Part shown: piece by piece, positions 34,678 to 64,000 of the stretch
How the letters are laid out: each line of letters begins with the position of its first letter
How positions within the stretch are numbered: position 1 is the first letter of the stretch
Assembly: GCF_000003815.2 (NCBI RefSeq)
Contig: NC_049994.1
Location: 7,526,424-7,590,423 of the forward strand
Length of the DNA: 64,000 nucleotides
Origin: Branchiostoma floridae
Taxonomy: Eukaryota; Chordata; Leptocardii; Amphioxiformes; Branchiostomatidae
Direction of reading: 5' to 3'
Position numbers and translations under genes: made by a program
Notes under the pieces: model-generated
Databases searched by the model: none
Told to the model about the DNA's origin: nothing
The model's input: only the letters and a program-made list of their open reading frames with translations

Positions 34678-34830
34678 GTTACCAGTCAATGTCACACCAA
34701 ATTAATTTATTGCTTCTCAGATTTTTTTCAGAAACAAATTGGACTGACAGGTAAAAAAATTTCAAAAGGTCTGGGGTGAAGATATATGGCTTAAATAACA
34801 CATACCACACAGGACATAGGTGTGCCTTAA
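34678..34830 (+). repeat. Left terminal inverted repeat (outer part)
   Basis: Reverse complement of 63633-63781. Shared landmarks in order are 'cacaccaaattaatttattg', 'ttcagaaacaaattggactg', 'gaagatatatggcttaaata' and 'cacacaggacataggtgtgc', with about ten mismatches or indels over ~150 bases. Confidence 0.92.
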
Positions 34831-34869
34831 AACTCAATGCTTTATTAAAACTCACTAGTTACATGAAAC

Positions 34870-35925
34870 AACAAACTAGGAACATCACTTCAAACAAAAT
34901 AACATCAAGAAATCTTAGTTTCTCAGAATGCTACACTACATGAAATCTGAACTCTACATTCAATTTTCTAAACAGGGAGTAAGGGTACTTAGGGTGCCCA
35001 GATAGGCTAATCATCGGAGCATGTAAGAAAACTACAGTCTGGGAGATTTCAAGGTTCTATCAACTTAACCCTAAACTACTGATTTAATCAACCTTACTTG
35101 TTGGATACATTTACAGGAAAAAAGGTAGGAACATCAGTGTAAACAAAATATAACAGCATCAAGAAATCTTAGTTTCTCAGAATGCTACACTACATGAAAT
35201 CTGAACTCTACATCAGTTTTCTAAACAGGGAGTAAGGGTACTTAGGGTGCCCAGATAGGCTAATCATCGGAGCATGTAAGAAAACTACAGTCTGGGAGAT
35301 TTCAAGGTTCTATCAACTTAACCCTAAACTACTGATTTAATCAACCTTACTTGTTGGATACATTTACAGGAAAAAAGGTAGGAACATCAGTGTAAACAAA
35401 ATATAACAGCATCAAGAAATCTTAGTTTCTCAGAATGCTACACTACATGAAATCTGAACTCTACATCAGTTTTCTAAACAGGGAGTAAGGGTACTTAGGG
35501 TGCCCCGATAGGCTAATCATTGGAGCATGTAAGAAAACTACAGTCTGGGAGATTTCAAGGTTCTACCAACTAAATTCTAAACTACTGCTTTAATCGGTAA
35601 CCTTTAACTTATTGGATACATTTACATGTAAAAAAAATGGTAGGAACATCACTTCAACCAAACATAATAGCATCAAGAAATCTTAGTTTCTCAGAATACT
35701 ACACTACATGAAATCTGAACTCTACATCAGTTTTCTAAACAGGGAGTAAGGGTACCAGTTGAGTACTAAGGGTGTCCTGATAGGCTTATCATTGGAGCAC
35801 GTAACAAAACAGTCTACAGTCTGGAAGACTTAAAGGTACTATCAACTAAGTTCTAAACTACTTACTGTTTTCATCAATCTTACTTGTTTGAAGATGATGA
35901 CTTGTTGGATACATTTACACTGTCA
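34870..35925. repeat. Left subterminal array, four ~250 bp units
   Basis: Four head-to-tail units. The landmark 'aggaacatca' falls at about 34878, 35127, 35380 and 35642, giving periods of 249, 253 and 262. Each unit also holds 'cagaatgctacactacatga', 'gctaatcatcggagcatgta' and 'aaaactacagtctgggagat'. The first three are nearly identical and the fourth is more diverged. Mirrored units occur at the right end. Arrays of this sort commonly hold transposase-binding sites in large DNA transposons. Confidence 0.92.
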
Positions 35926-36016
35926 ACATTATGTTCGGCTTCAGGTTTGGTCTATTGATTGTAGTGTCATCTGCGGGGCAATGCACAAAAGATAATGCAG
36001 TCATTTTTTGAAAGCA

Positions 36017-36022
36017 TTTATT
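36017..36022 (-). terminator. Polyadenylation signal of gene L
   Basis: AATAAA on the minus strand, 35 bases after the TAA stop of the coiled-coil/Tudor-like gene and ~90 bases before the subterminal array. Confidence 0.7.
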
Positions 36023-36056
36023 ATCGCTACAAGAAATGGAAGTTTTGATCCTGTTT

Positions 36057-39000
36057 TTACAGGCGACGGGGAGGTTTGAAAGCCTTGAATTTTTTGTCAA
36101 TGTTTTTTTTCCCCCTCACCTCATACTTTTTATCACTATATTCTACCACATCCAGGTTTGTAGCGATAATGAAGGCTTGGGGAACGATGTCAATATCTGT
36201 ATTTTCGGGTCTCATGTACTTCCCTGTACCACTAGATGGATCGGGGTGAATGAACTGTACTTTGGCTTTACCCCTTTTATACACTTGAAGAACTTCCCCT
36301 GGATACCATCCCGGCACAGGATCTGAATACCAGACCCCCACCCAGCTGCCTTTTTGCACCGGATTTTCCAACAGGCCTTTCTCTGACTTCTCTCTGACTT
36401 CTTCAACATTCTTGTCACCATCTTCAAGTTGAAGGAAATCTTTGTCCCTTTGGCTTTCACTCAGGTGCTGATCAGCAAGTATCTGTAGTCAAACAGAAAT
36501 ACCAAAATGAACATTATTTCTTACAACAATGTGACTATATGTCAAAAAGCAGTTACTCAAGAAACTGGCTAATTTTTACTCTCCAAGCAGAGGTCAAATC
36601 GCGCAGATATAGTAGTAGTCCAAAAAATTACACGAGCGCCCTTCCTTCCTCTGCAACAAAACGCATAGGGGCGGGGATATCCTTTCAAAATCTGTGTTAG
36701 TGCTCCGCCCCCCCAAGCATAAAAAGATTGTTAGCCAAATAGTTTTACTGCCCCAGATCAATGTGCACCCCACATGTTCAGCGGGTTGCTTTTTCGACTA
36801 CTACTATATCTGCGCGATTCGACCTCTGCTTGGAGAGTAGCTAATTTTTAAAACGGTAAGATGTGTCAGACAAGATCAGTTGCCTTTTATCAGTGACACT
36901 GGAGAGATCATGTTGGAGAGCAGTTTTATATACTAGCTGTAAGTTGATATGCCAAAGAGATCAACAAGAGCTCTTATGCATGTAGGATATAAAAACTGAG
37001 ACTGCTAAATACAAGTACAAAATCAATCTATGTCTTGGAGATACTCAATGTTTTTATCCTTTTTGGAAGAAGCTACTTCAACAAATGTAATAAGCAAAGA
37101 TTTGGTAATTATCTGGCTGAGACGTATGAAATCCTTCAACAATTTTATAGTTAGGCTAGCTCATTTTTCCATCACATTTCAACTCATTTCCTGCTGCCAG
37201 TACTGTACTTAAGGCCTGCTCCATATATAATTTTTTAAAGAAATTAACAAACCTCATTTTCTTGAATGTCTGGTTGTTCCTCTCCTTGCCTTCCTTCCTT
37301 CTCTCTCTTCAAGTCTTCTATCTCTTCGGTAAGGAGTTGTCTCTCTCTCTCCCATCTTCCCTTCTCTTTCTCTAACTCTTCTATCTTCTTGTTGAGGAGC
37401 AGTTTCTCTTTCTTCAGATTCTTCACTTCGCCTGCATCTTCAATGTCTTCAGCTGTTTCCAATCCCTTTCCTTGCCTTCCTTCCTTCTCTTTTTTTAAGT
37501 CCTCTAACTCTTGTTTTAAGTCCTCCACCTGCTCATTGAGTTGATCATTTTCCTTCTGTAGACGCTCTGCATTCTCCTTGCATTTCTGCTGTGCAAGCTG
37601 TTGTTGACACAAACACAAAATTGAGTCAGTTGATAATTGCAATTGAAGGGACACCATTATGTTTTTTTTAAATATGAGTGTCTGAACAAGACTGACAATT
37701 GGACGATGTATATCTAAGGCCTGCTTCATACCTACAACAAGTACATTATAGTCATGCGACTGTTACTGTCTATCATTATGGGCAACGATTGTCTTTAGAC
37801 ATGTGTTCAGAGTATCATGAGACACCCACAGCTCAGGATTACATTACAGTGTGTGCATCAGACCAACATTGACCTCTTGCACATGAATTGGTCTCTATCT
37901 GAAGTCTCCCCAATTAGAGTAACCTTGGGTGGGTTGGGAAAAGTCCTGTGTAACAAAAAAAGCACTGGTACATGTCAGCATTCAGGCTAAAAATGTTAAT
38001 AATGAACTTACCCTTATTGTATCTGCGGCATGGTCAAACTCTTTCAGACTCTTGAGCTGGCCATCATGAAATTTTTGCAGAAGATCAAAGACCTTCTGCT
38101 CATCATGGAGGCCAGTCAAGCAGCTGAACAGAGTCTGCTTCACTTCTGTTTTGCTCTGGCGTTGGTACGACCCTGTCTCCCATCTGTCCATTATGCCTTC
38201 AGCAAGCCTGAAGCAGCGCTTGCTGAGAGTGGCTACAGTCAGATGTGTTTGGTTCTGACTGTTTATCTGCTTCAACTGGAATGTTAAAAGAAAACTATTG
38301 TTAGGGCAAGAACAACTTAAAACATCAGAAAACAATAAAGTCTTAGAGGAGAAGAAAAAAGACCTTTATTGTATGTTTTTGCTTTCTAACAAGCTAAGTA
38401 CAGGGTCAAGGTGAAAAATCCTAATTTCATTTGTGTTACAAATAAGGAATACCCGACATGTCATCAATTGAATACTGAACTCAGAAGTCAGATTGTCCAA
38501 AAGTCACAATCAATGTGTTTGGTGTTTGCAATAGGCGGTTATACTTATAGGGCTGCATATACATGTACCCAGTACAGTTCAGTACAGTACAGTGGAAATC
38601 ATTTTGGTATAGGTCCAAAATATCAGAACATCAACAAGCAGGTTTTTGTACCTCAGTTCTGAATAAACTTATATAACTTTTCCTGCCAAAAAAGATTTCC
38701 CCTATCAAATTGATAAAGTTGAAGTTACTAAAATCAACACTTAAATGTGAGAATTTCTTTTGAAAGCTTGGTTTCTCTGCATAAGATACCAAATGTTTAA
38801 ATAAACATTCTGTTAAGTGTTTAAAATGTTTCTGTCATCATTGAAGATATTAAAAGTTGCTTTGTCACAGTGTTCAGGGGCTTTACCAGACTGACAATAT
38901 TGGCCACAGTATATGGAGAATAATCTACTAGAGGAGTTTATTCAATGGCCAATTTCTCAATTTTTGTCCCCAAATCCTACAATCCATGCTTTGACAGGAA

Positions 39001-42000
39001 ATGTCACGACTTAGACAAAATCAATTAAAAAAAAAACAGCACCACAAGCATCTGATTGAACAAAACTCTGTCTACATATTGGGAAATATCTCCAACATCT
39101 CTTTACTTCATTTCATTTTAAAACTTAAATGTAGTAGATGAAATTAATACTATTTGTAGTTCTTTTCTTAACTGGAATTATATACTTAGTAATTGGTTTA
39201 TTCATCATCTTGTCCATCATGGTTTAATTGCTTAGAAACTTTCCTTCTGTGGATGACAACAGCTACTCTCCAAGCAGAGGTAGAGTCGCGAAGATATAGT
39301 AGTAGTCAGGAAATTTACTGGTCCGTTCCTCTTACCTCTGCCTCAAAACGGAACGGTACAAGCCTATTAAATATAATCACTTTGACACATCCAGGGAGTT
39401 TTGTAAAGGTGCTAAGTTTTCGACAAGAGTAAGGAGTTTCTGCCTGCAGGTGTTTCCTGTCTGTCAGTCTGACCAAACAACACTCCACCACATTAATCAA
39501 TTTGCAATTAGCCCTCAGGCACGGACTTGCAAATAAACTTCTTTCAGGCCATGACTTCAGTTGCATGAATTAAGTGTCTCAAGTGAGTGACCCCTTCCTC
39601 TTTTTTCCCGAAACAGCAAAAACATGATACCAGTAAAACCAAAAAAAAAGACTATAAGACTTCAAGGTAAGATTTGTGCCCCTGTCCCTCCCAAAACCAT
39701 TACATCTAGAGTCAATCTAAAGCAAGGACAACAATAACAATCAACTCACATCTTTGCCAGTTACAGATGGGACATGCTTCTTTCTCCACCAGCTTTGTGC
39801 TTTCTTTAGTACCTCATCTTCTCTGGCCTTTTCCAGGTCTGGATGCTTCTCCCGCATCAGATTGACTGTAAGCCTGAAGTCCTCTTCGGTGGTGCTACTT
39901 TTGTATGATGTTTTCTTCATCTTCTTTTTCTGTCTGTTTCCTGCAAGATCCCTGTCTTCTTCTGATTCAGATGTAGGACGAGATCTTTGCAAAATGTTCT
40001 TCTTGGAACGCGGAGTGTTTGGGTGGGGCACTTTGTTCTGTAGCTTTATGACAGATCCCTCTTCTGATTCAGATGAGCTTCTACTGGTAGAGCGAGATCT
40101 TTTTGAGTTCTTGGAACGCGGAGTGTTTGGGTGGGGCACTTTGTTCTGTAGCTTTATGACAGATCCCTCTTCTGATTCAGATGAGCTTCTACTGGTAGAG
40201 CGAGATCTTTTTGAGTTCTTCTTGGAACGTGGAGTGTTTGGGTGGGACACATTCTTTTTCCGTAGCTTTACCTGGCGTCCGACAGATTCCACTTTTGATG
40301 CACGTGCAGTTTTGGCCTTAGAAGGTGATGCCTTGCCTTGTTTGGGAGACTGCTTGTTCAGATGCTTTTTCTGGACAGGGGTAACCGGGAACTTGTACGG
40401 ATCTCTTTCTTCTGATGGACCTGCAACAGTCACAGAGTGTTCCTCGTCATCTGAGTCTGCACCCTCTAGTTGTGTTTCACTTTCTTGAAGTTTCAGGTAT
40501 TTCTGTACAAACTGGCTAGCATCTTCTATTTCTTCCAGCTCGGCCCAGATTGATCCTTCGTGTGCCATATAATCACCCATGTCCACAATATCCTTCTCAT
40601 CTCCAGCATCATACCCCTGGTTGCTTGTGGAATCTGAAAACTGAAAAGAAAGGAATTTTCAACAAAGAGTTTGTCAATTTTGTACCTCAAACAAAGTAGA
40701 AGATGAAGTGCACTTCATTGTTGATTGTACTATTGTCAATGAAAGAAAGACTCTATAGTTACATAGAAAAAAAACACATGAGTAGCACTGACAAGTTTAT
40801 ATTCCTAATGCGTTTGAACAAACCGACCATAGCTAAACCCATACAGTCCTACATTTTCACAATTACCAAGAAGCGAGAAGAAGCCGAACTTCTGTGTTAG
40901 ACTAGATCTGTGATACTTTTATGTATAAACAAAAACTGTACTTTAAAAACTTTTCTTTGTGTTGTATTGACCAACTTTAAATGCCCAAAATCAATTAACA
41001 ATGGGTGCGAAATGTCACCTTGTGTGCCATTATATTAGTGTTAATTGGCTACTTTGCATTTGAAACAGTTGACTTGGTTCAAACCATCACAGTTGTCATT
41101 AATTCATTTGTCACTTGCATACAAGAAGGAGCCAGCCTATTTTAAAGTTCTCCATATAGGTCCTCTTGCTAGTAACAATATCTTTTCAAATCTTTTGGAC
41201 TGGCTAAAGGGAGAGAAGTTACTACAGTAGGTAGGAGTCTGTGTAAATTGTACTCCTCACATTTCCAAATGAATTAGTAAATAGTTAGGAACCTTCACCT
41301 CACCTTCTACCCCAGTGGCTAATACTAATAGGAATTGCAATTTTTTACACCCCCCCTCCCAAGTAATGATTAAGTATGAAAGTCAATGTATGTTCTATGG
41401 AAATATTGCAAAATAAAGTTCACAACCAACAATACATACTAATGTAAAAGTATGAGTGGCTATACAGAAAATCCGGGTCAGAGGATCAGGTCCAGGTCCA
41501 GACCTCACTATATAATTTGATGATAATCTGGATGCCAATTATATTTAGGTTCTAACCTAGCTGTTTTTTTGTAGGTCTTCCTATAATTTTGTCCTGTTCA
41601 TTCATATCTGCTGACATGACTAAAACAGTACAAAATTGACCTTCAAAACCAACTGAAGTATGTCAAATAAAATCTGGAGCCTAACCTCTGCTTGGAGAGT
41701 AGCCAAATCAGTCTGATTTCCAGCACATGTACCTAGATTTGAGCTCCTTGGTTGCAGGGACAACTCTCTCCCAAATATATTTTTAATCTTTGCAGAAGTC
41801 ACTAGGCACATGGAATGAAACTTGAGATTCCAAAATTCAACTGGAATCTTCTCTGTTCTCCAGCTAAACATGCATACTGCGTACTTTTTTGGCAGTGTTT
41901 TAGGTGTTTTCAAGGAGGTAATTTACCCCAGCCTGGATACCAGACCCCAGCCCAATCTTCTAGCGTCTGGTATCCAGGCTAAACTACCCTCTCCAAGAGG

Positions 42001-42392
42001 AGAGTAATGTGGTGGGTCACTGCTTTTATACCTACCACATATGGTTTGGGCAAATATTCTGTTGCTATAATTTAAAAGTAGAAACCATATAGTACATGTA
42101 ATAACAAATTTGATTATGTATTGATACACACTCTTGATACACAGCAAGAAATAATCCTTTTCAGACAATGTGTGAGAAAAAAAAGAAAAGTACTTACCCA
42201 AACAGAAATGAGCCTGGGGTTCTCTTTTACTCTGGAGATGTATCGAACTGGCACCCAGTCGTCATCATTCAGGTATAACGAATTGAAGTAACCAACTTTC
42301 TTCACTTTGCTGCGCTTTGTTGTAACGGTCACAAAACACCAAGTCATATCTGGAATATCTGATATATTTTCTGAATCAGATTCAGAAGCCAT
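36057..42392 (-). CDS. Gene L: element-encoded SR-repeat / coiled-coil / Tudor-like protein, 5 exons, 706 aa
   Basis: Exons in transcript order: 42392-42198, 40640-39750, 38275-38012, 37597-37253, 36482-36057; every junction is GT-AG in phase 0. Residues 1-65 begin MASESDSENISD and hold a small Trp/Tyr-rich segment (VGYFNSLYL, WVPVRYIS). Residues ~66-362 are acidic then Lys/Ser-rich, with three near-identical 36-37 residue repeats of type HPNTPRSK...SRSTSRSSSESEE, a KKKMKK basic cluster and a helical tail ending WWRKKH. Residues ~363-450 are helical with no known domain. Residues ~451-565 are a strong Glu/Lys/Leu coiled coil. Residues ~566-706 hold a Tudor-like fold (VGVWYSDPVPGWYPGEV, VQFIHP, KYMRPENTDIDIV) and a basic tail. 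I infer a nuclear DNA- or chromatin-associated partner of the transposase; the family is unknown to me. It runs divergently from gene R. Confidence 0.85.
36578..36838. mobile_element. 261 bp MITE with ~43 bp near-perfect inverted repeats and target duplication
   Basis: 'actctccaagcagaggtc...gcgcagatatagtagtagtc' is mirrored by 'gactactactatatctgcgcgattcgacctctgcttggagagt'-type sequence at the right. Direct repeats 'gctaattttt' flank both sides. It lies in the last intron of gene L. Solo ends of the same family occur at 39263-39306 and 41686-41704. Confidence 0.9.
38345..38412 (-). mobile_element. 3' tail of a retroelement
   Basis: 'aaagacctttattgtatgtt' plus 'tctaacaagctaagtacagg' mirrors the tail of 56340-56655. 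Only the last ~65 bases are present. Confidence 0.5.
40005..40235. repeat. Coding tandem repeat of 108-111 bp in gene L exon 2
   Basis: 'ggagtgtttgggtgggg/aca' recurs at 40012, 40120 and 40231. The first two units are almost identical at DNA level, which argues for recent in-frame expansion of the SR-like Ser/Arg repeats. Confidence 0.92.
40690..40990 (+). mobile_element. 3' end of a non-LTR retrotransposon
   Basis: A frame ending ...FIFLMRLNKPTIAKPI..., then a stop, matches in style and partly in sequence ('aagaagcgagaagaag') the element at 56340-56655. Both sit on the plus strand. Too short to classify. Confidence 0.4.
41930..41980. repeat. 51 bp perfect hairpin MITE
   Basis: 'agcctggataccagac' is mirrored exactly by 'gtctggtatccaggct' around an 18-19 base loop. 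It sits in intron 1 of gene L. Confidence 0.8.
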
Positions 42393-43788: not shown

Positions 43789-43789
43789 T

Positions 43790-43900
43790 ACCCCACTCCA
43801 TAGGGGAATTTCACCAGTACAATGAAGCTGTAAATAGCGTCTGTCTTCTCTGTCATGGTTAGTGGAAGACTAGCTCTTCAGTGAGCTAAAACTGGATTAA
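43790..43900 (+). mobile_element. SINE tail, same family as 28090-28370
   Basis: Carries 'ggggaatttcaccagtacaatga' split by substitutions relative to the other copy, 'tctgtcttctctgtca' and 'agtggaagactagctcttca'. The tRNA-like head is absent. Confidence 0.6.
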
Positions 43901-43975: not shown

Positions 43976-45476
43976 GCATTTAAGTTCACAGGGATTTAAT
44001 TTTGGAGAAGCGGTAAAAATGATTTTTCGGGTGGTTCTAAGGCCCACTTTACATTACGTTTTTCGCGTTAGCGGGACTGGCGTTAGCGGGACTGCGTTAA
44101 CGGGAGCCCCGTGTAAAGAGAGTTCCCGTTAACGTAGCCCCGCTAACGCCAAATTTTCTCCCGTCCACTCCGAAGCGTACGGCCGTAGGCTCAGCGGGAG
44201 TCCCCGTGAACGCCAAACTGCGTATAAAGAGAACACGTCGGGCTCGCGTTAGCGGCAGTCAGGGTTTAGACGTTTAGCATAAAGCGCGCGCTTATTAGCA
44301 TATGGCGCGAAAATGGTAGGTACAGATTTGCAAAACATTGGAGGAAAATTGCCAGCAGCGATCATGTTCATAACGCTGGGTAAGAATACAGTGATAAGAA
44401 AACAGTCTTCCGATAGTTACTTTTTTATATACTAGTAGAATGAATGTCAACCCAAAAATCAACCCGAACTACGCAGAAAAAATAGTTTTCACGGCCTGCC
44501 TTTTCCGTAATGGCCACCTACGCAGGCTCTTACGTCATTCGGGTCTGCAGTCAACCTTCAAAGCAGGCGGGATGTCAGCGAAAAATAGTCTCATTCTCAC
44601 ATTTTTGGACGACCTATTTTTGCACAATTTTCGTGGAAGACCTTTAAAAAAATATACGATAAAGTTCGATTCCGAATAATTTCTCTTGCAATACATTGTT
44701 ACGTTGTACCGAAACCAGAAGCCGCTATCTCTGCAAATTGTGTATAAAGTAATCCCATTACGCGTCTCCGATTGGCCGTTGCTATGACAGTGGTGGCCGT
44801 TGCTATGACATTGGTGGGGAAATTCCCGCTACATGAACTGCTGGCAGCTTGAGTTTTTACGTACGAGGTAGTTATTATACCTGCAGGAATTATGCGTATA
44901 TCACGGTTATTTCAGTACGTAGCCATAATTTAGCAGGTCATCACTGAAAGAAAGGGATCTTCTATCAAACAGTTCGCTTTGAAAGGGTTTTTAAGTGCTT
45001 TTTTATCGAAAATTTTGTGGTCGAAGTTACCGGAAGTGTCAGCGAAACAACAAGGTAGGCAGGGACTTGTATTTCTCATGCAAGTCACGTATTTGAATTT
45101 TCAATCACTTGGTAGCGGTACGCAAACAAAAAATTTACGGTTGTTCAATATAACAACGTGCAGCTAAAAAAAAACTGCGATCTTAACGGGTAGAATTTCA
45201 CCAAGATTTTACAATCCACCGCGCGCCGCGGGTGTCCTGTCAGATTTCCGGGCGGTGTGTCTAAAGAGGTGCCGATAGCGGCGTCCCGATAACGGGGAAT
45301 TTACCGCTAACGCGAAAAGCGTAATGTAAAGTGGGCCTAAGTTTGCGGTAGCACCATGCACTGCAGTCTCTTCTTGCCACGGAAAAATGTTTGCGGTGGT
45401 TTTAAGTTCGCGGTGAAGCTGCCACCGCAAAAACCGTGAACATTAAACCATCGCGAAAGTTTCTGCATTTACAGTA
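43976..45476. mobile_element. MITE of the TACTGTAAA family, disrupted by a nested element
   Basis: Left end 'tactgtaaatgcatttaag' followed by 'ttcacagggatttaatttt'; right end 'ccgtgaacattaaaccatcg' then 'ttctgcatttacagta'. The two halves are separated by the element at 44041-45337, so the original was ~200 bp. Confidence 0.8.
44041..45337. mobile_element. PIF/Harbinger-like non-autonomous transposon, 1.3 kb
   Basis: Long inverted ends: 'ggcccactttacattacg' and 'cgcgttagcg' are mirrored by 'cgctaacgcg' and 'cgtaatgtaaagtgggcc'. A 3-bp TAA flanks both ends, matching the TWA duplication of PIF/Harbinger elements. Subterminal 'cgttagcgggact' motifs are repeated. An internal plus-strand frame at 44440-44679 has no recognisable domain. 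Confidence 0.88.
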
Positions 45477-52100: not shown

Positions 52101-55100
52101 TCTAACCGAACAGCAGCTGTAATGTAGAATAACTCAGGGCTTGGTCAGGGGCTAGGTGTAGCCAATATGCCTTAATTACATGTCAAAGTTGCAGATTTAA
52201 TGATAATAGTTTATTGTTCTACACATTGGTGCAAGCAAATAATGTCAACATCTGTTGATACTACAGCAAAAAGAGCATCATGTATAATGTGGTACCAATG
52301 TTGTTCTCACAGAGAGAATCGTGTTAAGATTTCTGGAGCTGCAGAGGAACCCACAAGAAGGTACTTGTACAAGACTTGTTTATGTTGTGTCTCCATATAC
52401 TCATTCTTTTTACAAAATTTTAGTGATATTATTTGATGTCTGATGTCTTTTTCATTTTAAGAAAGTACAAGGTGTATATAGCTACCCACAGATAGATCTG
52501 AACTATTCTCCTCTTTATACCATTACCATAACTTCATAAACTTAAAGACTGTTTGCTTTTCAGAGAAAGAGACAGAGTAATTATGAACATAGCAAAGAGG
52601 CGACACAGATCACCACCACCTCTGCCAGAGAATAGGTATGTTATGTATATTGACTATCTGACTTTAAGTTTAAGTTAAGCACAACTTTGTAATAAAAATC
52701 ATATTACACCACAGGCGATAGGCCATTGAGTTTTCGTTCCTAAGTCTTTATATAGCGCCCAGACTATTGTTCGGGTGCCTCCAAGTATTACACAAGTGAG
52801 TTCCGATCGAACCCGAAGGGCCAACACATCTGTTAAAATAAGGGAACTTCATGACATAAAGTTTATTTTCATAAGCTTAAAATGATAGGTTTATCACAAA
52901 AACTTAGCAGTATGGGCTTGCAAACAAGAAATGGAAGAAAAAGTGGAGCTTGAGACAGCCCTGAGTCACACCAATATATTTCCAAAGTTCTTGGGTCCCA
53001 GGTTGGACTAACAGAAGTGGTTGATCATCTGAGTCCATCCATACAAAACATAATGAGGTCGTTGCCCAATTAGTCGGGGCATGCATCTTATACAGAAAAG
53101 AGCACTAGTTTCTTGCTGTTTTTAGTAGGCTAATTTAATGATTATCTACTTGCAGACACCTTTCTGTGAGAAGAAATATTCTGGCTGTCCTGGGAAAGCT
53201 GAAGGATGAAAGTTGCTCCAAGCAAGAGGAAGAGGATGGAAGTGACACAGGCAATGAAGCTGACATCAGCAGCAACAATATCTCTTGTATGTGGAAGAAA
53301 TTTATCAGTTTACAGTATGATTTATTTATTCATTCAAAATGCGACGGTACATTACACATTTATCAGTTTACAGTATGATTTATTTATTCATTCAAAATGC
53401 GACGGTACATTACACAGACCTATAGGCAGCACAGCTGATTGTATAGGTCTACAAATAACATGACATTGCAATGGTACAAGACAAATTTACATATAAAGAC
53501 GGTATATACATAATGGTATATTAGAGAAACGTGAAATTCAAAGATTTAAAGTTGAAGTGGCACCCACACAAATTTTGATCTCAGTAAAAAAATTTCATTG
53601 TGCCATGAATAGATTTAAATCTTTCCGACAACAAATTGAGGAACATTTATTATTATTTTGCAGTGAATGACTCCCTCCATGATCAAGCTACACATACCTC
53701 TACACCAAAAGGGAAATTCAGAAGAAAGACACCAAAAGGGAAATTCAGAAGAAAGAGAGGTAAGTTTAAAGTTCCTATTGATGATAATAATCACCTGTCT
53801 ACCATAATAGGCCATGATATGGTACAAGTACCCATGGCAAGAAGAGAGATACTTTTATACATGACAATGGACCTCAATTCTATCTGGAGAAGATTTAGAA
53901 TACTGAGTGTAGAATAAATGAAGCAATTTCATATTATCTTGTTGAAAGTTACATTTAATGCACATTTAGGTTTTGTTGATTGTCTCCCATATGTACATCA
54001 CATCATATATTTTACTACTAACTTTCTGTGAGCTTGCCCCAGAATCATGTGCCCAATGTAGTTCCACCCTGAGATCAAAATTTGTGTGGGTGCCACTTCA
54101 ACTTAATGATAGCCCTTGTGCCTTTCTTGTAATTCCCATTACAGCTCCAGGGATATGTAGCCTTTGTATGAACTGTATATTAGGCTTCTTTCCGACAACA
54201 AATTGAGGGACCTTTATTATTATTTTGCAGTGAATGACTCCCTCCATGATCAAGCTGCAAGTACCTCTACACCAAAAGGGAAATTCAGAAGAAAGAGAGG
54301 TAAATTCAAACTTCCTCTTGATCATTGAATGTTTTTGTGAACTGCATACAACAATTTGTCTGCACATCCTCCTATATGCAGGGACATCCAACAGCCAAGT
54401 ACTGCCTGTCTGGATGTGCCCTGCTCTTTCAACCGCACCCTTAGTTCCTGACTGCCCTGCTTATAAATATGAATGAGGTTACCCTTATACATGCGAGACA
54501 GCTTTTGAAAACGGAAAGCCTGATATATCTCTGATTGGCTGACAGCTGGTTTGGGGGAGTCCACAGGAACTAATGGTGACGGTTGAAAGAGCAGGGTACA
54601 TCCAGTCACAGGCAGTTTGGCTGTTGGATGTCCCTGCATAGGAGGATGTGTCTGCCAACATTTATCAGGACCTGCATGTATGTTTAGCCTCCTGCAGAAA
54701 CTTTTCTACAGGCAATCATTTGTTTCTATGAGCAAGGCAGTTTCTTTTAAGGTAGAGTAATTGGTGAAAGTGTTTATAGGCAGCAGATACAGCTGTCCCT
54801 GTGACTGGAAAGAAAACATACAGTGTACTGTACATGTACTCATAGAAAAAAATGCCTCCCACTTTGTGCAGAACCACTGTATGTTCAGTAATTTGATGGC
54901 TTAGAATCAATACAATTTTTAAAACACAATTATCATGTTGCAGGTAGGACAAAGGAAGAAAAAGGAAAACTTGCAAAGATAGCTTTAAGCCAGGAGTCAA
55001 TCAGGGAGGCCTGGACAACAACATGTGGCTGTGGGAGAGACTGCTGTGGCAAGCTTGGCGTAGAAAAAATTGCCAAAGCTAGGCAGTCCTTCTGGAAGCC

Positions 55101-58100
55101 ATACAGTCGACACAAGCAGAGGCTGTTGATCATGGAAAAGCTCCGGAATGCTGATAGGAGGAAAGAACCCGACCATGATCATTATGAGTTTTCCGTCGGT
55201 GGCTTTCTCGTCTGCCTCAAGGGATGGTGGACTATTTACGGTGTTAAGAAATCAAGGTATGTTGTACAAACATTTTTTTTCCTTTCATACATGGTAATTA
55301 CTGAGTTCAAAATTATTTCCAGGAGCTATGCTGTGGTAAAACAATGGTGCAGTAGAAGCCGCTTAATTGCACGGCCTATTTGCCAATGATTCTGGTGCAA
55401 TTATCCGGCCGGTGCAAGAATGCGAAGTTATCTTGCTGGACCGCACCAGTTTTGGATTTTTTATTCCATGCAGTTAACAGAAGTGTGCTTTAATCCGTTG
55501 TGCAATTAACTGGCTTCTACTGCACTGCTTTTAAGTGCTTGATGATAAAGATGGTGATAAAATTACTTTTTGTTTTATGCTTTTTGATGCCAGTAAGCAA
55601 TTCAATCAAATTTTAGAACTGAGGGAATGGCACCCTGTAAAACCTATCCTTAAGTAATTCTCTAGAAAAAAAAGGGTAAAAGAATATTCAAGACAGTTTG
55701 AGTGATAAGTATTTTAATAAAATCCTCCAGGTTCTATGAGGTGAAGGATGATTATGAAGCCGGACAAAATGTTGCATCTGATGGAAGGAAGGGGATGTCG
55801 TACGACACAAAGAGGTACCTGACTGCGAAAGAGTGGTTAGGACAGTATGCAAAGAAGTTTGGTGATGACATGCCAAACAGTAAAAACAAAAACCTTCCAC
55901 AATGTGCCACAAGGACGGTCATTTTTGAAGCGTATGAAGATGCCCACTCTAATGAAAAAACGCTGAAAGAATCCCGATTTAGCCAAATGTGGAAAAAAGA
56001 GTTCCCCAATCTCAAGATTCCAAAGGTAGGTCAAAGTCTTTTCTAATTAATAGTTTAGTTACTTTGTCTTATTCTTCTAAATTGCATGGTTAAAAAACAG
56101 TCAGTAGGTGATATATGTTTCTGCTATGTACCTAAAGACAGTACTTCTTGCAGGAAAATAGATGAAATATTGTGATTTGACAATCTGGGGCATACTCAGC
56201 TATATCATAGAAAAGTCTGAAAAGGTGGTCCAGCACTGCTGTGACACATGTCTGAGCTCATCCTTTCATTCAATGTGGTCCAGCACTTTGCTGTATTGAG
56301 CATGAAATTAGACTGAAATTGCTGGCTTTTGTTTGAGATTGGGAGGGAGGGACTTTCATTGACGAAAAAACACTGAAAAATTTACATTTCTAATGCAATT
56401 AGTCAAACCATGACTTGTGTATTCTAAGCTCCACCTGCAACTACACTTACAGCAGCATTAAGAAGCGAGAAGAAGTTGAACCTGTACATACTGTAGTATT
56501 ACTTTAGACTTTGTAGTCTCAGTCATGTATCACACCCTACTCAGATTGTACTTTAAGAATCACTACTAGATGTGTCCTATTCACCTTGATCTGTACTTAG
56601 TTTGTTAGAAAGCAAAAACATACAATAAAGGTCTTCATTCATTCATTCATTAAAGCTTGTAAAAAAACACTTCACACAGCAATGCTTTAGGCTCGTTTAT
56701 CAATAAAGTTGGCCTCCACTATAATGCACTGACAAAAATATTGGTGATGATTGTGACACATATTTTGCAAAGAAAGGATGATGAGTGAATTGCCCACAAT
56801 TAGAAATATTTTAACATTTGCAAAGACAAGTTTTAGTTGACATGATTAATAATTTCATTGCAGAACAACAGATTTACAAAGTGTACTGAGTGTGACACGT
56901 TGAAGAAGCTCCTTAAGTCTGCCAAAACAAAAGCAGACATCAAAGAAGTCCAAGACAGAAGAACTGCTCACTTCAGCTTACAGAAGTAAGTTCAACATAT
57001 TTAATATTTTTTAGAGATTTGTAGCATTTAGCAATGGGTTTTAATATTTCATAAAGTGCCTCTGTCAACACCCTCCAAGCCATGTATTTTGTTCCTGAAA
57101 CAGCCTTTTAGTTTTATAATGTCAAAACCTAATATTATGTCTGGTCTTTAGACATGATGCAAAAAATGAAACGGTTCTATCGGTTTGGCCAAAGAATCTG
57201 ACAGCAAACGGTTTGCACGATGCAAACTTGCAAACCATTTCAGTTCCTTGAAAAGGCATGGTAATGCATCTGTAATGCAACCTCTGACCCCTGAGGTTGT
57301 TGTGATCTTGCCCAAACTTGTACTTCAGTGTCAAATTATTGATCTTCGATCGAAATTGAACCAATGTCTTACTGAAGCCGGGTTCTGCCATGACCTTGGA
57401 AATGCCTCTGAAAACATTGTGGTCCAGATATATGCCATGCTATGACATTTCCACTTGATCTCCTGACACATACCCCTGCGATATCAGGACTGCTGGCTCC
57501 TCAGTCGACCAGGAGGCGGCCCGATATAATATAAACGAATAATAGCATAATTGAAAACGAAGACAAAACTCCCAAATGACAGATTTCTAATTGTACTTTC
57601 CCCATGACGGCCACCAAATATGAACGCACGTGCCCAGATGTAAAACAGATCACGCCGCTTTTGTGTTCATGATGACAAAGGTTGCAATTCAGGATTACTA
57701 GAAACCGTTTCAGAACCGCCTTGCGAGGAGGTTTGGAAAAACTGTCTCAGATCCATTTCGCAGCGTTCATGATGACAAATCGTATCCGTTGCAGCTTCCA
57801 AACGGATAGAGCCGTTTCATTTTTTTGCATCATGAACGGGGCCTTAGTCTTTAGAGACAGTAGGCAACTAAGAGATAGATGCATTGTTACAGGTGATACT
57901 TTTATCTGTAGATGTGCCATACAATGTAGTACAAATTTGTCTAGTTTTTAGTCATCAGATCTAGCCCTTTAAGCTCTTCCTCATACCAGAAAGAAAGTTA
58001 CAGTTGCCAGGTGTATATTCATAGAGATGCCAAGTCATTCTTTTTTATTATCTGCTAAAATAATTAGTTTTATTCAACATAAAGCTTTGCAATTAGAAGA

Positions 58101-61100
58101 CAAGTTCTTAATGCCCCTGTCACACCAAGGTTGGGAGCAAGGTCAGCTGCAGTTGGCAGGATTTACCACTGTTCAGCTGTTTAAAACATTCAGGAGTCGA
58201 CGGGAGGTTTGGGCATGGTTGTAGACTGCTTTGCTAGTGGCAGGGCTTTATACATGAGCTTAAGCCATATATATATTGATGATTTGTATTACATTTGTAA
58301 GGCACATGGCATAGATTTATTAATCTGAACTGATCTCTAAGTTACATCTTTCTTTGAATTATAGATATGATTATACCATGATCGCAAACTTTTCTTTTTC
58401 AGTTCAGCCAGACAAAAATACTACAAACACATCAAAAAAGCAAGAAATAAGCCCGAAAACTACCTGTCAATCATAATTGACTCCATGGACCAGAACAAGA
58501 CTGCTGTGCCTCATTTTGCCACTCAGACAAAGGTAAGGGGTACTTTCACTAATGATATATTTCATGTCATACCTGCGACGCGAAAACGTTTGATACGGGT
58601 GTTCCGGACCGTGTGATAAATCCGAATCACACAGGCTCGAAGTTTGTATCACATAGGCTTCCTTCGAGTAAATTGAACTATTTCGAACGGGCCGAATATG
58701 GCACGGTTGACAATTCGAATACCGGATTCGGACGTTAGATTTGCTGTTGTTACAATCTTTTGTTCAAGGACACAACATTTTCTCAACTTCTGGTGCATTT
58801 TGCAACAAAATATGTGTTTTCTCAGGTGGGCATGACATATAGAATACAACACGGTGTATTCCGCATCACCCTCCGGCCTTCGGGCGATCCTTCCCACGGG
58901 AGGGCTGGGACCTCGGGTGATACGGAATACACCGTGTTGTATTCTATATGTACCATATACAGTACAGACTATTTAGATTGATTTCTTGCTTGAATCAAGG
59001 CGGTTATATAGGGAAGTCCATGCTTAAATGTAACAAGGGAATGTGAGCTGTATTCAAATTGTCAGGTTCCTTACATGTCATTTTACGATAGAAATAATTC
59101 AAAAGTACATATATAAGTTCAATCAAACACTAAAAACTTAATACTCTCTCCTATTCTAATGCTACTGACACTACAGGTTAATGTTCCTAATTTGGAAAGA
59201 GAATGCTGATTTCTCTTGTTGTTTTTACAGTTGCAAGCGAACTTGAAACCACTGAGAGTGCACTTGACAGGCGCCCTGGCACATGGACAAGACAGGGCAT
59301 TCATCTATGCCTGGACTGAGAAATTCAGGATGGACACCAATATTACTGTCAACGTTCTGATCAGCATTCTGCTGGACATTGCTAACAAGGTTTGTTAAAA
59401 ACAGAGCCTGTAAAAATATTTTGTATGGTGAGGCCTAAAAATGTCAGTGTAAAAAAGATAAGGCCAATTGAATAAGTTATAATCATTTTTGGCTAAAACA
59501 TGAAACAGCTAACATGGATGTCTCATTGAAGTCTCAATCCTTGTGTTATCACTGGCTGATACAAATCTTGAGTCCAAGTTGCAACTTCTTAGCCATTTGC
59601 TGTAATACCACACATGCAATTCACTAATAAAAGCTTTTTCACATCATAGCATAACTCTGAGCAATCTTAAAGGACTCAGCAATCTGTATACATTACAACA
59701 TTTGCACATTTATAATTTTTTCATACTTTGGGCATTTAGAAATAGGGTAGAAACAGGCCACAAAAGGAGTCCTTTGTTTATTGGTGCCACCAATATATAA
59801 GCCCGGGATAACTGTTTTCCTTTGACAAGTTAGAACCAAATCGAAACTTCACATGGTCGAATACCGGGTATCTCCAGAAGCTATTAAGTTCCCGCACGGT
59901 CGGAAAACTTAAAAAAAAAAAACTGCCCCTATAGTAGAGAGAGAGAGAAAGAGCGAGAGAGAGAGAGTTGTCAGCACACAATGGCATCATATCTTCACTC
60001 GTACATTGGGGTACTGATATTCAGACTTCCTACGCATAGAAATAAGTTCAAAATTGCCTTAGAAAACACGACTTTCAATCCCTGATAATTCTTTTGGTTC
60101 CTTAGTTAAGTAAAAAACTATTCAGAATGTCTAAAGCCTTCTTTTGTTTTGTGTGCAGGATTACAGTGGCCGCCTTCCAAACACCTTATACCTACAGCTG
60201 GATAATTCAGCAAAGGAGTGTAAAAACAAATACATCATTGCTTTTGCTGCCTGGCTGGTGCACCTCAGAATCTTTAGAAAGGTAAGGAATCATAATGAAT
60301 TGATCACCACCAATGGAAAATATCAATGAAGGCAGATGCTGGGTGACAGATGGTAACAATGTCTGACATTTGGCCTGTCTGTTGTAACTTGAATAATTTT
60401 TGCTTGCTAAGGAGCTTATTACCCATTTTATGAGCTTTTCTGTGTGTATGTAGTAGGAGGTGGTCCGGGAGTTATTCTTTTAAATTGGGACTTTGAAATA
60501 TCTTTGGAAAATTACCTATAATTATTAGCCTTCTTAATTCAATAAGTATTTCTTTATGAGATGAATCATTTAACAGCACCATAAGCATTCTAAAGAGGCT
60601 TTCTGTTATTTGCATTTGTACAACAGGTGAAGTTGGGCTATCTTATGCCAGGACACACACATGAGGACATCGACCAGATGTTTAGCAGATTCTCGACACA
60701 TTTAGAAAGGGAAGATGCACCAACGATTCCAGAACTGTTCCAACACTTGACAAAGGCATATACACCAAACCCAGACTGCAGGTATGGTATTTAATATCTT
60801 CAAGCATTTCTGACATGTGAATGTAGTGGATAGAAATACCAGTCTCTTCAATAAATCTGTTTTCATCTTTAAGGAAAGAGATGTGAATTTTAGCTACTAC
60901 AACTACATCATCTACATTCTTATAGCCCCAAATGGCCCTGCATGGGGCATCATATGGGGGAACCGCTGCTTTGTGTCACGCTGCTAGTCTGCCGGTTACT
61001 AAGTCATTAAGGGTCACTTGGGCAGCCCTGCGCTGGACGGCCTCCACTACCTGCATCCCTTTGTTGGTGTACGGGTCCCAGACGATGGCACTATATTCCA

Positions 61101-62799
61101 AGTGAGGCCGTACCAGCGCTTTGTAACAAGTGGCCTTGACCCTAGATGGAAAATGGGTCAAGTTGCGCCGAATGACTCCTAGGACCTTACCAGCTTTGCT
61201 AGTGGCGTGGTTGATATGGGTGTCCCACCGCAGATCGTTGGACAGTTGTATTCCAAGATAGGGGTAGGACTTAACACCGGTGAGGGCTTCTCCACAGAAG
61301 GAGTACTGAGTTAAGATGGGGTGCTTCTTACGGGTGTTATGGAGGATGACATATAGAGGGGTTGAACAACATAAGCCAACCATTTTGCCATTCTGTTAAC
61401 GCATCGAGGTCAGACTGCAGACCTTGGGCGTCAGAAGGCTTGCTGATAGTTCGATAAATCAAGCAATCGTCAGCAAATAGTCGAACATGTGAGTCTACGG
61501 AATCGGGTAGGTCGTTAATATAGAGCAGGAATAGCAGAGGGCCTAACACAGTACCCTGCGGAACTCCAGAGGTGACCTTGACAGCTTTAGATGTTCCACG
61601 GTCAAAGACAACACTCTGGGTTCTCTCCGTAAGGAAGGCCCTAAGCCAAGACTGAAGGAAGCCAGAAATACCATAGAGCTCGAGCTACTAGTAGGAACTT
61701 CATTTAAGAAACACATTTGTTACACCAGTGTGCATTCTTGGAACATTTTTTAGGCTGTAACCACTTTAATGTAACATATTTCTTATACACAAAATGTACT
61801 TTGAACACGGAATGTCATTTTGCTTAAACTGTTGTGTTTTGCCTCTCTTGTAATATTCAATTGTTATTTTCAATTGTGCTTGTTGTCCTCTTCCTTGTGA
61901 GGTCTTTTTTTCCTTCAAAAGGCCATCACCAATTCATTGTGATTTCTTTTTTTTCATAGCTCACTACATGGCAAAATTTCACATCTTTATCTGAAGCTAT
62001 AAACATTCATAATGATTTAGGAATCAGCAAATAGTAGCACGAGTATGTTTGAATGTAGTTTGTTTGAATCAGATTCTATAGTCTACCATTCTAAGTCTAG
62101 AGTGACTCTACTTTTACCCAACCACAAACAACAGCACCATCTCCTGATTTCTGATGATAAATGTTAGCATTGTCATTTAAATAACGCATTTATCATTTCT
62201 TCTTTTTTAGACTCATGACCAGTATGTGGGACTTTCGGGACATCATTGACAAGGAAATTGCCGCCATTTCTGGTCACTCACGACCACACCAGTTCACAGC
62301 CAAGCTTGTAAGTGGAAAAGTCCAACTAAAAGCAAAGCTGTGGCCCGACCCCGAGGAACCAGAAGTTGACATCCCTGTGAATAGATTCATCCCCCAATTC
62401 CCCAAATGCACATCTGTAAAAGAGTGGAAAATAAATGAGCTTGACAGTAGAATAGTAGAACACAAGATTGCATTGAAGTCAGTTGAAGAAGATTTAGAAA
62501 AGTGGGCAGAAACCCCAATGGACAAAGTTTCCTTCACCACATTTTGGACAAAATTCTTAGTAGATGAGGAAAGGCAACCAGGAAAACCAGCTTGGAGGTT
62601 GAGTCACCTTAAACATCATATGCCACCCCTGGATGAAAAATCAGTTATTAATGATGAAACAAGGGCTTCATTGGAGAAATTAAGCAGAAAGAACAAAGCA
62701 CCAATTCAAATTGTGGTGAAGGGGAAACCAGGAAACAGGAAAAGAAAACTGCAAAAGGCAGATGTTCAGAGGTCATGTCCAAAAAAGGCACGAAAGTAA
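46143..62799 (+). CDS. Gene R: Ulp1-type protease fused to a DUF7869-like DDE transposase, 23 exons, 1004 aa
   Basis: Exons: 46143-46229, 47580-47666, 48146-48193, 49010-49111, 49245-49307, 50029-50120, 50525-50603, 51070-51120, 51458-51502, 51830-51888, 52313-52360, 52564-52635, 53156-53286, 53664-53759, 54231-54299, 54944-55256, 55731-56025, 56864-56985, 58403-58532, 59231-59389, 60159-60281, 60627-60781, 62211-62799. All GT-AG, phases matching throughout. Residues ~30-218: Ulp1/SENP cysteine protease (DGEWLPDLIIEEYLKL; His125 in DHW; Asp142 in LLLDS; Gln191 and Cys197 in PQQTNGDDCG). Residues ~219-376: basic linker. Residues 377-620: Cys-rich, CGCGRDCC (404-411) and CTEC (586-589), probably zinc-binding. 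Residues ~640-808: RNase H-like candidate with Asp646 (IIIDSMDQ), Asp731 (LQLDNSAKE), Glu770/Asp771/Asp773 (GHTHEDIDQ). Lys-rich tail. Likely nuclear transposase with a deSUMOylase-like module. No stop or frameshift seen. A 5' non-coding exon is possible. Confidence 0.9.
46609..46825. repeat. Long palindrome (hairpin MITE) in gene R intron 1
   Basis: 'gacggtgcgcaaagagttac' at the left is mirrored by 'gtaactctttgcgtgccgtc' at the right. The arms continue inward through 'caagccctgccatgcacaca' and 'ccagctggcctc' to a small centre near 46715-46735, where 'aggacgttacatcaggtaacgtcctt' forms an inner hairpin. Confidence 0.85.
46944..47324. mobile_element. MITE with AAGACCCCTTTCACACTAA ends
   Basis: 'aagacccctttcacactaa' is mirrored by 'ttagttagtgtgaatggggt' plus 'ctt'. 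Inside, 'gcagtgtgaacgttcc' hints at further symmetry. Located in intron 1 of gene R. Confidence 0.8.
53300..53417. repeat. Two-unit 58 bp tandem duplication
   Basis: 'atttatcagtttacagtatg' through 'cgacggtacattacac' occurs twice head to tail, essentially identical, just inside the intron after exon 13. Confidence 0.9.
53551..54102. repeat. 34 bp perfect inverted repeat bracketing exon 14
   Basis: 53551-53584 and 54069-54102 are exact reverse complements ('gttgaagtggcacccacaca' start). They enclose exon 14 and lie just upstream of its duplicate, exon 15. Confidence 0.85.
53610..54305 (+). repeat. Tandem duplication of gene R exon 14/15
   Basis: The acceptor region plus exon ('tttccgacaacaaattgagg', 'tattattattttgcag', 'tgaatgactccctccatgat') occurs at ~53622-53760 and ~54190-54300. 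Both exons have phase 1 on each side, so either or both can be spliced in frame. Exon 14 has in addition an internal doubling of the basic KGKFRRK motif. Confidence 0.9.
54364..54650. repeat. Palindromic MITE in gene R intron 15
   Basis: 'acatcctcctatatgcaggg' plus 'acatccaacagccaa' at the left is mirrored by 'ttggctgttggatgtccctg' plus 'cataggaggatgt' at the right. The arms extend ~70 bases. Confidence 0.85.
55348..55524. mobile_element. MITE with TGCAGTAGAAGCC ends in gene R intron 16
   Basis: 'tgcagtagaagccgcttaat' is mirrored by 'attaactggcttctactgca'. The interior 'ttatccggccggtgca' and 'ggaccgcacc' matches 20991-21164. Confidence 0.8.
56340..56655 (+). mobile_element. 3' end of a non-LTR retrotransposon with (ATTC)n tail
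   Basis: A decayed C-terminal frame is followed by 'gcaaaaacatacaataaagg' and 'tcttcattcattcattcatt'. The AATAAA-like motif plus simple tail identifies a retroelement 3' end. It lies in gene R intron 17. Confidence 0.6.
57152..57846. mobile_element. hAT-like non-autonomous element with 8-bp target duplication
   Basis: Direct repeats 'gtctttag' lie at 57144-57151 and 57847-57854. The ends 'catgatgcaaaaaatgaaac' plus 'ggttctat' and its mirror 'atagagccgtttcattttttt' plus 'gcatcatg' are inverted. The left extremity has lost the outer 'ggccccgtt' seen at the right. It lies in intron 18 of gene R. Confidence 0.8.
58565..58990. repeat. Repeat region with a ~37 bp-arm palindrome in gene R intron 19
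   Basis: At 58836-58950, 'catatagaatacaacacggt' plus 'gtattccgcatcaccc' is mirrored by 'gggtgatacggaatacaccg' plus 'tgttgtattctatatg' around a GC-rich loop. A related arm ('cagtgtattccgtgtcaccc') occurs at 28638-28660 in the decarboxylase intron. Confidence 0.8.
59937..59968. repeat. (GA)n microsatellite
   Basis: Imperfect gagaga run in gene R intron 20. Confidence 0.85.
60925..61690 (-). pseudogene. 5'-truncated LINE reverse-transcriptase fragment
   Basis: Minus-strand reading shows SGVPQGTVLGPLLF, then the catalytic FADD box (HVRLFADDCLIY), then after a frameshift near 61380 the downstream segment with YLGIQLSNDLRWDTHI and a C-terminal RPHLEYSAIVWDP motif. These are standard non-LTR (jockey/CR1-like) reverse-transcriptase signatures. 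Only the palm-to-C-terminus remains and the frame is broken, so it is inactive. It is antisense in the last intron of gene R. Confidence 0.88.
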
Positions 62800-62829
62800 A
62801 GGTTTGACTGCATGAAAAAAGTCAACTCC

Positions 62830-62963
62830 AATAAAGTTAACTCCATTTCATGTCAAAGTCTAAGCCTATGGGGTAATATTATGCACATCGTTGATGATGA
62901 TAATGTTTTTGTTTTCAATGTTATTGTACCTCACACAATAGTTGATCATCGTGTGTTAATAAA
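62830..62963 (+). terminator. Polyadenylation signals of gene R
   Basis: AATAAA hexamers at 62830-62835 and 62958-62963, 31 and 159 bases after the TAA stop and before the right subterminal array. Confidence 0.6.
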
Positions 62964-63107
62964 GGGTAAACACCCTGAGTGGTACATCATAAGATACATG
63001 ACATTGTGTAAAGCCTGATTGGTTGGTCAAAGAAACCACAATTAGCATACAAGGTGGTTTATGACTTGGGTTTCCCTTCCAGACACATAAGACTATGGAA
63101 TGTACCA

Positions 63108-63630
63108 TTACTCAAAGTAGTTTAGTATTTAGTTGATAGTACCCTGAAGTCTTCCAGACTGTAGTTTTCTTACATGCTCCAATGATTCAAGCCTATCAGG
63201 GCACCCCACCCTTACTACCTGTTAGGAGACTGATGTAGAGTTCACATTTCATGTAGTGTAGCATTCTGAGAAGCTCAGATTTCTTGATGCTATTATATTT
63301 TGTTTGAAGTGATGTTCCTAGTACCATTTTTTTCATGTAAATGTTACTACCCAACAAGTAAGGTTGAATAAAGCAGTAGTTCAGAATTTAGTTGATAGTA
63401 CCTTGCAGTCTTCCAGACTGTAGTTTTCTTACATGCTCCAATGATTAGCTTATCAGGGCACCCCAACCTTACTACCTGTTTCTAGACTGATGTAGAGTTC
63501 ACAAATTTTCATGTAGTGTAGCATTCTGAAGATTTCATGATGCTGTTATATTTTGTTTGAAGTGATGTTCCTACTATTACTGTTTCATGTAAATATATCC
63601 AACAAGTAAGTTTGAATAAAACAAGTTTTA
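63108..63630. repeat. Right subterminal array, two ~252 bp units
   Basis: Mirror image of the left array: 'gatgttccta' at 63311 and 63563, each preceded by 'tcatgtagtgtagcattctg' and 'actgtagttttcttacatgc'. Only two units are present versus four on the left. Confidence 0.92.
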
Positions 63631-63632
63631 AG

Positions 63633-63781
63633 GCACACCTATGTCCTGTGTGGTATGTGTTATTTAAGCCATATATCTTCACCCCCGACCTTTTGAAATT
63701 TTTTCTTACCTGTCAGTCCAATTTGTTTCTGAAAAAATCCGAGACGCAATAAATTAATTTGGTGTGGCATTGGGTGGTAAC
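63633..63781 (-). repeat. Right terminal inverted repeat (outer part)
   Basis: Reverse complement of 34678-34830, beginning inward at 'ggcacacctatgtcctgtgt' and ending 'ggtgtggcattgggtggtaa' plus c. Confidence 0.92.
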
Positions 63782-63988: not shown

Positions 63989-64000
63989 AGTAGTATATAA

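What the first reader, a model, noticed from the sequence alone, without database searches (positions are those of the whole stretch)
34678..63781. A ~29 kb giant DNA transposon with mirrored compound termini and two intact divergent genes
Sequence shows ~150 bp outer inverted repeats followed by mirrored ~250 bp tandem units, enclosing exactly two complete genes that run outward from a central region, one toward each end. Both reading frames are intact and the termini are very similar, which argues for recent activity. Polinton/Maverick elements are the familiar giants of animal genomes, but none of their genes occurs here. Classification as a transposon is inference from architecture. I cannot exclude that a repeat database already holds this family.
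Basis: partly seen in the sequence, partly recalled or inferred. Interest (0 to 1): 0.95.

Follow-up and report, generated by a model that had tools for sequence, protein, structure and literature searches.

The report
Giant two-gene lancelet DNA transposon
A 29 kb stretch of a lancelet chromosome looks like a giant jumping gene carrying an intact cut-and-paste enzyme of a kind that databases list only as 'domain of unknown function', plus a partner gene; the same gene pair sits inside other giant elements with clear insertion scars elsewhere in the same genome.

Summary
Confirmed and extended. Window 34677-63782 (29,106 bp) has mirrored compound ends (outer inverted repeats of about 158 bp, 94% identical, then ~253-bp units) and encloses two intact multi-exon genes running outward. 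The right gene (22 exons, 978 aa) is a Ulp1/SENP-type protease (PF02902) fused to DUF7869, which models as an RNase H-like DDE nuclease; its listed structural matches are retroviral integrases and Mos1/SETMAR. The left gene (5 exons, 706 aa) found relatives only in lancelets; it has a coiled coil and a weak Tudor/Agenet-like end. In the window's own genome the left gene has 25 more exon-level matches on 8 contigs. Of five such loci fetched, four carry right-gene exons. Two are complete elements (31.3 and 35.2 kb) with long terminal inverted repeats and perfect 4-bp target-site duplications; two further repeat pairs (41.7 and 13.1 kb) also have perfect 4-bp duplications. So the gene pair belongs to a mobile family. 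Against: this copy has no target-site duplication, its tips differ from its relatives', its outer 110 bp is a dispersed repeat, and its genes are divergent where both complete relatives have them in tandem. Repbase could not be consulted.

The parts
34677..34834 (+). left outer terminal inverted repeat (TGTTACC...)
   Evidence: its nt 16-125 is also a dispersed genomic repeat
34860..35930 (+). left subterminal array of ~253-bp units
36057..42392 (-). left (accessory) gene; exons 42392-42198, 40640-39750, 38275-38012, 37597-37253, 36482-36057; 706 aa; acidic/Ser-Arg region, coiled coil, weak C-terminal Tudor/Agenet-like domain
   Evidence: exons align with annotated relatives P0121/P0122
42393..46142 (.). 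central region between the two start codons (includes a ~1.3 kb stretch bounded by 38-nt inverted arms, 44037-45341)
46143..62799 (+). right (transposase) gene; 22 exons; 978 aa; Peptidase_C48 + DUF7869
46143..52360 (+). exons of the N-terminal part with the Ulp1/SENP-like C48 protease domain (His, Asp, Gln, Cys of the recalled Ulp1 motif present)
   Evidence: E 3.7e-20; homologue P0002
58412..58532 (+). exon with first putative catalytic Asp (D620, IIIDSMDQ)
60159..60281 (+). exon with second putative catalytic Asp (D705, LYLQLDN)
60627..60781 (+). exon with putative catalytic Glu (E744, GHTHEDIDQ)
63115..63623 (-). right subterminal units (two copies, mirrored)
63624..63782 (-). right outer terminal inverted repeat

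Best explanation
Window 34677-63782 is a giant DNA transposon of a multi-copy lancelet family whose autonomous unit is a pair of genes between long compound inverted repeats. Proposed mechanism: the RNase H-like DUF7869 domain of the right protein (D620, D705, E744; DD38E) cuts the two ends and joins them to a target with a 4-bp stagger; repeated subterminal units probably serve as multiple binding sites for it or its partner; the fused Ulp1/SENP-like protease may process or de-SUMOylate the transposase or its host surroundings; the left protein is an accessory subunit, perhaps chromatin- or DNA-binding. Shown: termini, open reading frames, domain identities, conserved residues, predicted fold, recurrence of the gene pair, TIRs and 4-bp TSDs in relatives. 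Inferred: cutting activity, roles of protease, left protein and subterminal units, and that this copy inserted as one unit.
Against: No TSD at the window copy: 4-bp flanks GATA and CTAG. Its TIR tip (TGTTACC) differs from the AACAG tips of the relatives. Its nt 16-125 occur at many places (40 matches scored of 351 candidates, 2 of them the window's own ends); of the other 38, the 6 inspected show no second end within about 1.5 kb. Gene order differs from C8 and C17. No second copy with the window's own pair of ends was seen in that capped list; the search with the 253-bp unit did not complete. The right flank starts with another repeat exactly at the junction. One of five left-gene loci fetched (C6, 20.02 Mb) has no right-gene exon in 40 kb, and the left relative P0125 shares no contig length with the 120 right relatives listed of 197.
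Confidence: 0.87

Rival explanations
1. The gene pair at this site is a domesticated or immobilised relic: a former transposon whose genes are kept by the host while its ends decayed or were replaced, so this copy no longer moves.
For: Both frames open although introns hold other repeats; no TSD; terminal sequence unlike the relatives; one close relative pair seen in each of B. belcheri and B. lanceolatum.
Against: End repeats are still mirrored and 94% alike, with 99% over 81 nt. Aligned stretches of the left protein are only 35-56% identical to the B. lanceolatum and B. belcheri relatives, unlike a strongly conserved host gene.
Confidence: 0.2
2. Two unrelated copies of a dispersed repeat happen to flank two genes in opposite orientation; 34677 and 63782 are not ends of one mobile unit.
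For: nt 16-125 of the TIR are a dispersed repeat; no TSD.
Against: Mirror symmetry extends through the 253-bp units, which have no further match in the 64 kb window at E below 1e-8; both genes stop just inside the repeats; relatives have the same layout with TSDs.
Confidence: 0.08
3. The family is an already catalogued superfamily (Sola is the best guess from the 4-bp TSD) and the element is only a very large lancelet member.
For: Sola2 elements have 4-bp TSDs (PMC3627910 passages); general likeness of the domain order to Sola is recalled, not tested.
Against: The Sola2-type elements described there have 12-13-bp TIRs and AWWT TSDs; here TIRs are 329-458 bp and TSDs ATTA, ATAG, ATTC, TTGG. No Sola sequence was available to compare.
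Confidence: 0.35

Closest known systems
ProtoRAG / RAG-like transposons of lancelets
   Same: Lancelet DNA transposon with two genes (DDE transposase plus a partner) between TIRs
   Different: ProtoRAG has tail-to-tail RAG1-like/RAG2-like genes, CAC-starting TIRs, 5-bp TSDs (PMC7481187, PMC7204232 passages); here no RAG domain in Pfam, AACAG or TGTTACC tips, 4-bp TSDs in relatives
Ginger1 transposons
   Same: Transposase fused to a Ulp1 protease in some families; 4-bp TSD; ends TGTNR (window TGTTA)
   Different: Gypsy-type integrase with zinc finger and GPY/F, C-terminal protease, about 2.6-7 kb, CCGG/CCGT TSD (PMC2836005 passages); here DUF7869, N-terminal protease, 29-42 kb for the copies with gene content seen
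Sola superfamily
   Same: 4-bp TSD; domain order similar by recollection
   Different: TIRs 12-13 bp in the Sola2-type elements described; homology not tested
Polinton/Maverick
   Same: Giant animal DNA transposon with TIRs; a Ulp1-like protease (recalled)
   Different: No polymerase, ATPase or capsid match in the two genes; TSD 4 bp against 6 bp (recalled)
Pfam DUF7869 (PF25273) proteins of animals, sponges, green algae, bryophytes (names)
   Same: Right gene is a member
   Different: No function assigned in the Pfam description shown; no paper in the library holds the name

Membership tests
cut-and-paste type DDE/TIR DNA transposon | terminal inverted repeats | tested here: met
cut-and-paste type DDE/TIR DNA transposon | target-site duplication of fixed length | tested here: inconclusive
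   window copy: none; relatives C8, C17, C7, C4: perfect 4 bp, 4 of 4 examined
cut-and-paste type DDE/TIR DNA transposon | RNase H-like nuclease with D, D, E | tested here: met
   by predicted fold of homologues and conserved residues, not by assay:
cut-and-paste type DDE/TIR DNA transposon | copies at unrelated positions | tested here: met
   gene pair inside TIRs on C8 and C17, fragmentary on C7; copies with the window's own pair of ends not seen
cut-and-paste type DDE/TIR DNA transposon | excision or empty sites | not testable with these tools
   no other haplotype or other lancelet DNA available
Ginger1 | Gypsy-type integrase core, zinc finger, GPY/F | tested here: not met
   Pfam finds only C48 and DUF7869 above cut-off in the right protein
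Ginger1 | CCGG/CCGT 4-bp TSD | tested here: not met
   ATTA, ATAG, ATTC, TTGG in relatives
ProtoRAG/Transib | RAG1-like transposase | tested here: not met
   no RAG1 match in Pfam
ProtoRAG/Transib | 5-bp TSD and CAC tips | tested here: not met
   4-bp TSDs in relatives, AACAG/TGTTACC tips
Sola | transposase homologous to Sola transposases | not tested
   no Sola sequence at hand; Bao 2009 paper not held
Sola | 4-bp TSD | tested here: met
   in relatives only; not at the window copy
Polinton/Maverick | family B DNA polymerase, packaging ATPase, capsid genes | tested here: not met
   the two gene models give no such Pfam match above cut-off; the remaining intervals were read only as lists of open frames

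The most novel reading that the evidence does not exclude
DUF7869 defines an undescribed superfamily of eukaryotic DDE transposases, spread from green algae and mosses to chordates. In lancelets it runs giant (13-42 kb) elements with compound ends, 4-bp target duplications and a two-protein machine, a protease-fused DD38E nuclease plus a fast-evolving, possibly chromatin-reading partner: an independent counterpart of the RAG1/RAG2 two-gene design in the same animals.
Probability: 0.45. Interest if true: 0.86.

Novelty: new variant of a known kind. Interest (0 to 1): 0.74.

Why it matters
It gives a testable function (DDE transposase) to a widespread domain of unknown function, with elements whose boundaries and insertion scars can be read directly. 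It adds giant, intron-rich, two-gene DNA transposons with intact genes to an animal group that also carries ProtoRAG, so the question of why some transposases need a second, perhaps chromatin-facing, subunit could be asked in an independent system.

Tried and rejected
Chance as the source of the mirrored ends: rejected. TSD at the window copy: direct repeats of 4-9 bp within about 35 bp of the ends gave only 4-bp words, none placed at both junctions; a 2-bp TA is possible only if the shared tip TGT is ignored (by eye). Viral contigs: 31 stretches matched a pattern, none a relative. Prokaryote genomes: two short bin contigs encode DUF7869; no TIR-like pair around the gene was reported in them, only short or adjacent inverted repeats; I take them for protist contamination (inference). 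PDB by sequence: only weak matches (for the right protein, for the left protein's C-terminal part). Fold search with the whole C48-DUF7869 model listed 50 protease entries (SENP/Ulp1/NEDP1 first, then bacterial and one viral protease of that fold) because one domain filled the list, so the protease-free homologue was modelled and searched. The direct Foldseek job was never accepted. Host-gene synteny: the nearest left neighbour is a GAD/CSAD-like gene (exons from 33066 down to 25521, minus strand); its N-terminal exons were found neither in the window nor in 8 kb to its right, so whether the element lies inside that gene is open. The first left-gene homology search scored only the 8000 candidates sharing most words; it was repeated with low-complexity parts masked, which did not lift that cap (7999 scored): 5 proteins, all lancelet, 3 of them from one B. 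lanceolatum locus name. Papers: Bao 2009 and Yuan & Wessler 2011 are not held. Searches for prior description; I saw titles and the starts of abstracts of the listed papers and none announced such an element; Repbase and Dfam themselves could not be searched.
Full report
Observation. Outer inverted repeats lie at 34677-34834 and 63624-63782, in three aligned blocks of 90%, 97% and 99%, 94.4% overall (151 of 160 columns), far above chance (score 272 against a maximum of 29 in 177 random pairs). Inside them are mirrored ~253-bp units, 3.3 copies plus a degenerate one on the left and two on the right (Tandem Repeats Finder lists no array on the right). Two left copies are 100% identical over 253 nt; left and right units are 77-92% alike. 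No further copy of these units shows in the 64 kb at E below 1e-8.

Genes. Exons were modelled by hand from open frames, splice sites and alignment to relatives. The left gene (minus, 42392 to 36057) has five exons, all introns in phase 0, 706 aa without a stop. The right gene (plus, 46143 to 62799) has 22 exons, every intron GT-AG, 978 aa without a stop. There are two alternative near-identical small exons, 53664-53759 and 54231-54299; the first was used. The right protein aligns end to end with the annotated lancelet protein P0002 (66.6% over 982 columns), and the left exons align with P0121 and P0122, so the models do not rest on splice scores alone.

What the left protein is. It has no Pfam match above cut-off. 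Scans of four C-terminal pieces list several Tudor-like families weakly (Agenet 0.0025, Chromo_MORC2 0.0024, Tudor_3 0.032, BAHCC1-like Tudor 0.12), beside unrelated ones; the PDB profile search gave nothing better than E 0.11. Relatives were found only in lancelets (P0121, P0123, P0124 on one B. lanceolatum contig, P0122 in B. belcheri, P0125 in a floridae x belcheri hybrid), but only about 8000 candidates were scored in each search. Roles for it are inference.

Is it mobile? Copies in the same genome. The assembly of the window (513 Mb; window = C16:7526424-7590423) was searched. The left protein gives 30 exon-level matches: 5 in the window, 25 elsewhere on C2, C6, C7, C8, C9, C17, C18, C165, 32-68% identical, several with stops. 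Five of these loci were fetched with 36-40 kb each. Right-gene exons lie in four (C8, C17, C7, and a single exon at C6 26.09 Mb) and not in the 40 kb around C6 20.02 Mb, which contains 3,607 N. At C8 the right gene matches P0003 from its first to its last residue; 12 of 22 plus-strand hits are at 95% or more, the others lower, in part because hits run past exon edges. At C17 it matches P0005 in the same way, 8 of 22 hits at 95% or more. Both proteins come from a floridae x japonicum hybrid, so the window is most likely B. floridae (inference).

Insertion scars. C8: an inverted repeat of 329 bp, 98.5% (324 of 329), bounds both genes: 19172381-19203703, 31,323 bp, flanked by ATTA on both sides. 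C17: 14138095-14173318, 35,224 bp, inverted repeat 458 bp at 85.6% (first 250 nt 95.6%), flanked by ATAG. A search with the C8 TIR gave 95 matches (40 of 72 candidates scored); besides C8 and inner parts of the C17 ends it showed two more outward-facing pairs: C4 33374605-33387734 (13,130 bp, left TIR listed as 100% identical to C8's over 329 bp, bits 590 against 594) and C7 18176850-18218513 (41,664 bp). Their flanks are TTGG/TTGG and ATTC/ATTC. So 4 of 4 repeat pairs examined have perfect 4-bp TSDs. The interior of C4 was not read. C7 holds left-gene exons on one strand and scattered right-gene exons on the other, with 13,653 N in the 36 kb fetched, so its gene order is unsure. Seven more matches that reach the TIR tip (C6 four, C14, C8 5.7 Mb, C13) had no partner in the list and were not followed.

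What does not fit. The window copy has tips TGTTACC, not AACAG, and no TSD (GATA/CTAG). Its outer segment (nt 16-125) is a dispersed repeat: 40 scored matches of 351 first-look candidates, 2 of them the window's own ends. Six of the other 38 were inspected and have no second end within about 1.5 kb; five of these six share 237-388 bp with each other, more than they share with the window. Either the window element belongs to a branch with other terminal sequences, from which short derivatives spread, or its ends were replaced. The window's gene pair is divergent; C8 and C17 have left then right on one strand. The right flank is a MITE-like repeat starting at the very junction, also present at 32587-32696. 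The search by the 253-bp unit did not complete.

Other species. Close relatives of the right protein are in B. belcheri (P0001, 83%) and B. lanceolatum (P0007, 85%, fused by annotation to LAMB1). The third left relative, P0125 (contig 22212590), shares no contig length with a right relative among the 120 listed. Orthology of position could not be tested.

Comparison with the known. Papers were seen as passages only: Ginger (PMC2836005), ProtoRAG (PMC7481187), RAG-like (PMC7204232), Fanzor/Sola2 (PMC3627910), KolobokP (PMC9587614), Repbase (PMC4455052), giant transposons (PMC6431247). Ginger and RAG-like membership fails on defining features; Sola could not be tested at the protein level though the 4-bp TSD agrees. 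'DUF7869' is in no paper of the library.

Verdict. The new content is the identification of DUF7869 as a likely DDE transposase domain, the C48 fusion, the recurrent partner gene and the 4-bp TSD. Novelty is scored as a new variant of a known kind because the mechanism is the ordinary DDE/TIR one and because Repbase could not be consulted.

Noticed in passing
window 25521-33066, minus strand: GAD/CSAD-like decarboxylase gene just left of the element; N-terminal exons found neither in the window nor in 8 kb to its right, so the element may sit in one of its introns.
   Followed up: partly
window 63783-63990 and 32587-32696: MITE-like repeat (CTAGTTCACC...) starting exactly at the right end of the element, with a partial second copy 2 kb left of the left end.
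   Followed up: partly
window 36577-36842, 39264-39350: Small repeat with 50-nt inverted arms, 96%, and a partial second copy, in introns of the left gene.
   Followed up: no
window 60979-61684, minus strand: Fragment of a reverse transcriptase (RVT_1, E 1.3e-10 for 61340-61684) in the last intron of the right gene.
   Followed up: no
window 53664-53759 and 54231-54299: Duplicated small exon of the right gene, both copies with usable splice sites in the same phase.
   Followed up: partly
G000:C4:33374605-33387734: 13.1 kb element with a left TIR listed as 100% identical to that of the 31 kb C8 element and TSD TTGG, perhaps a young shortened derivative; interior not read.
   Followed up: partly
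L001 and L002 (contigs in Bacteroidetes bins): DUF7869 genes in bacterial MAG contigs; likely protist contamination.
   Followed up: no
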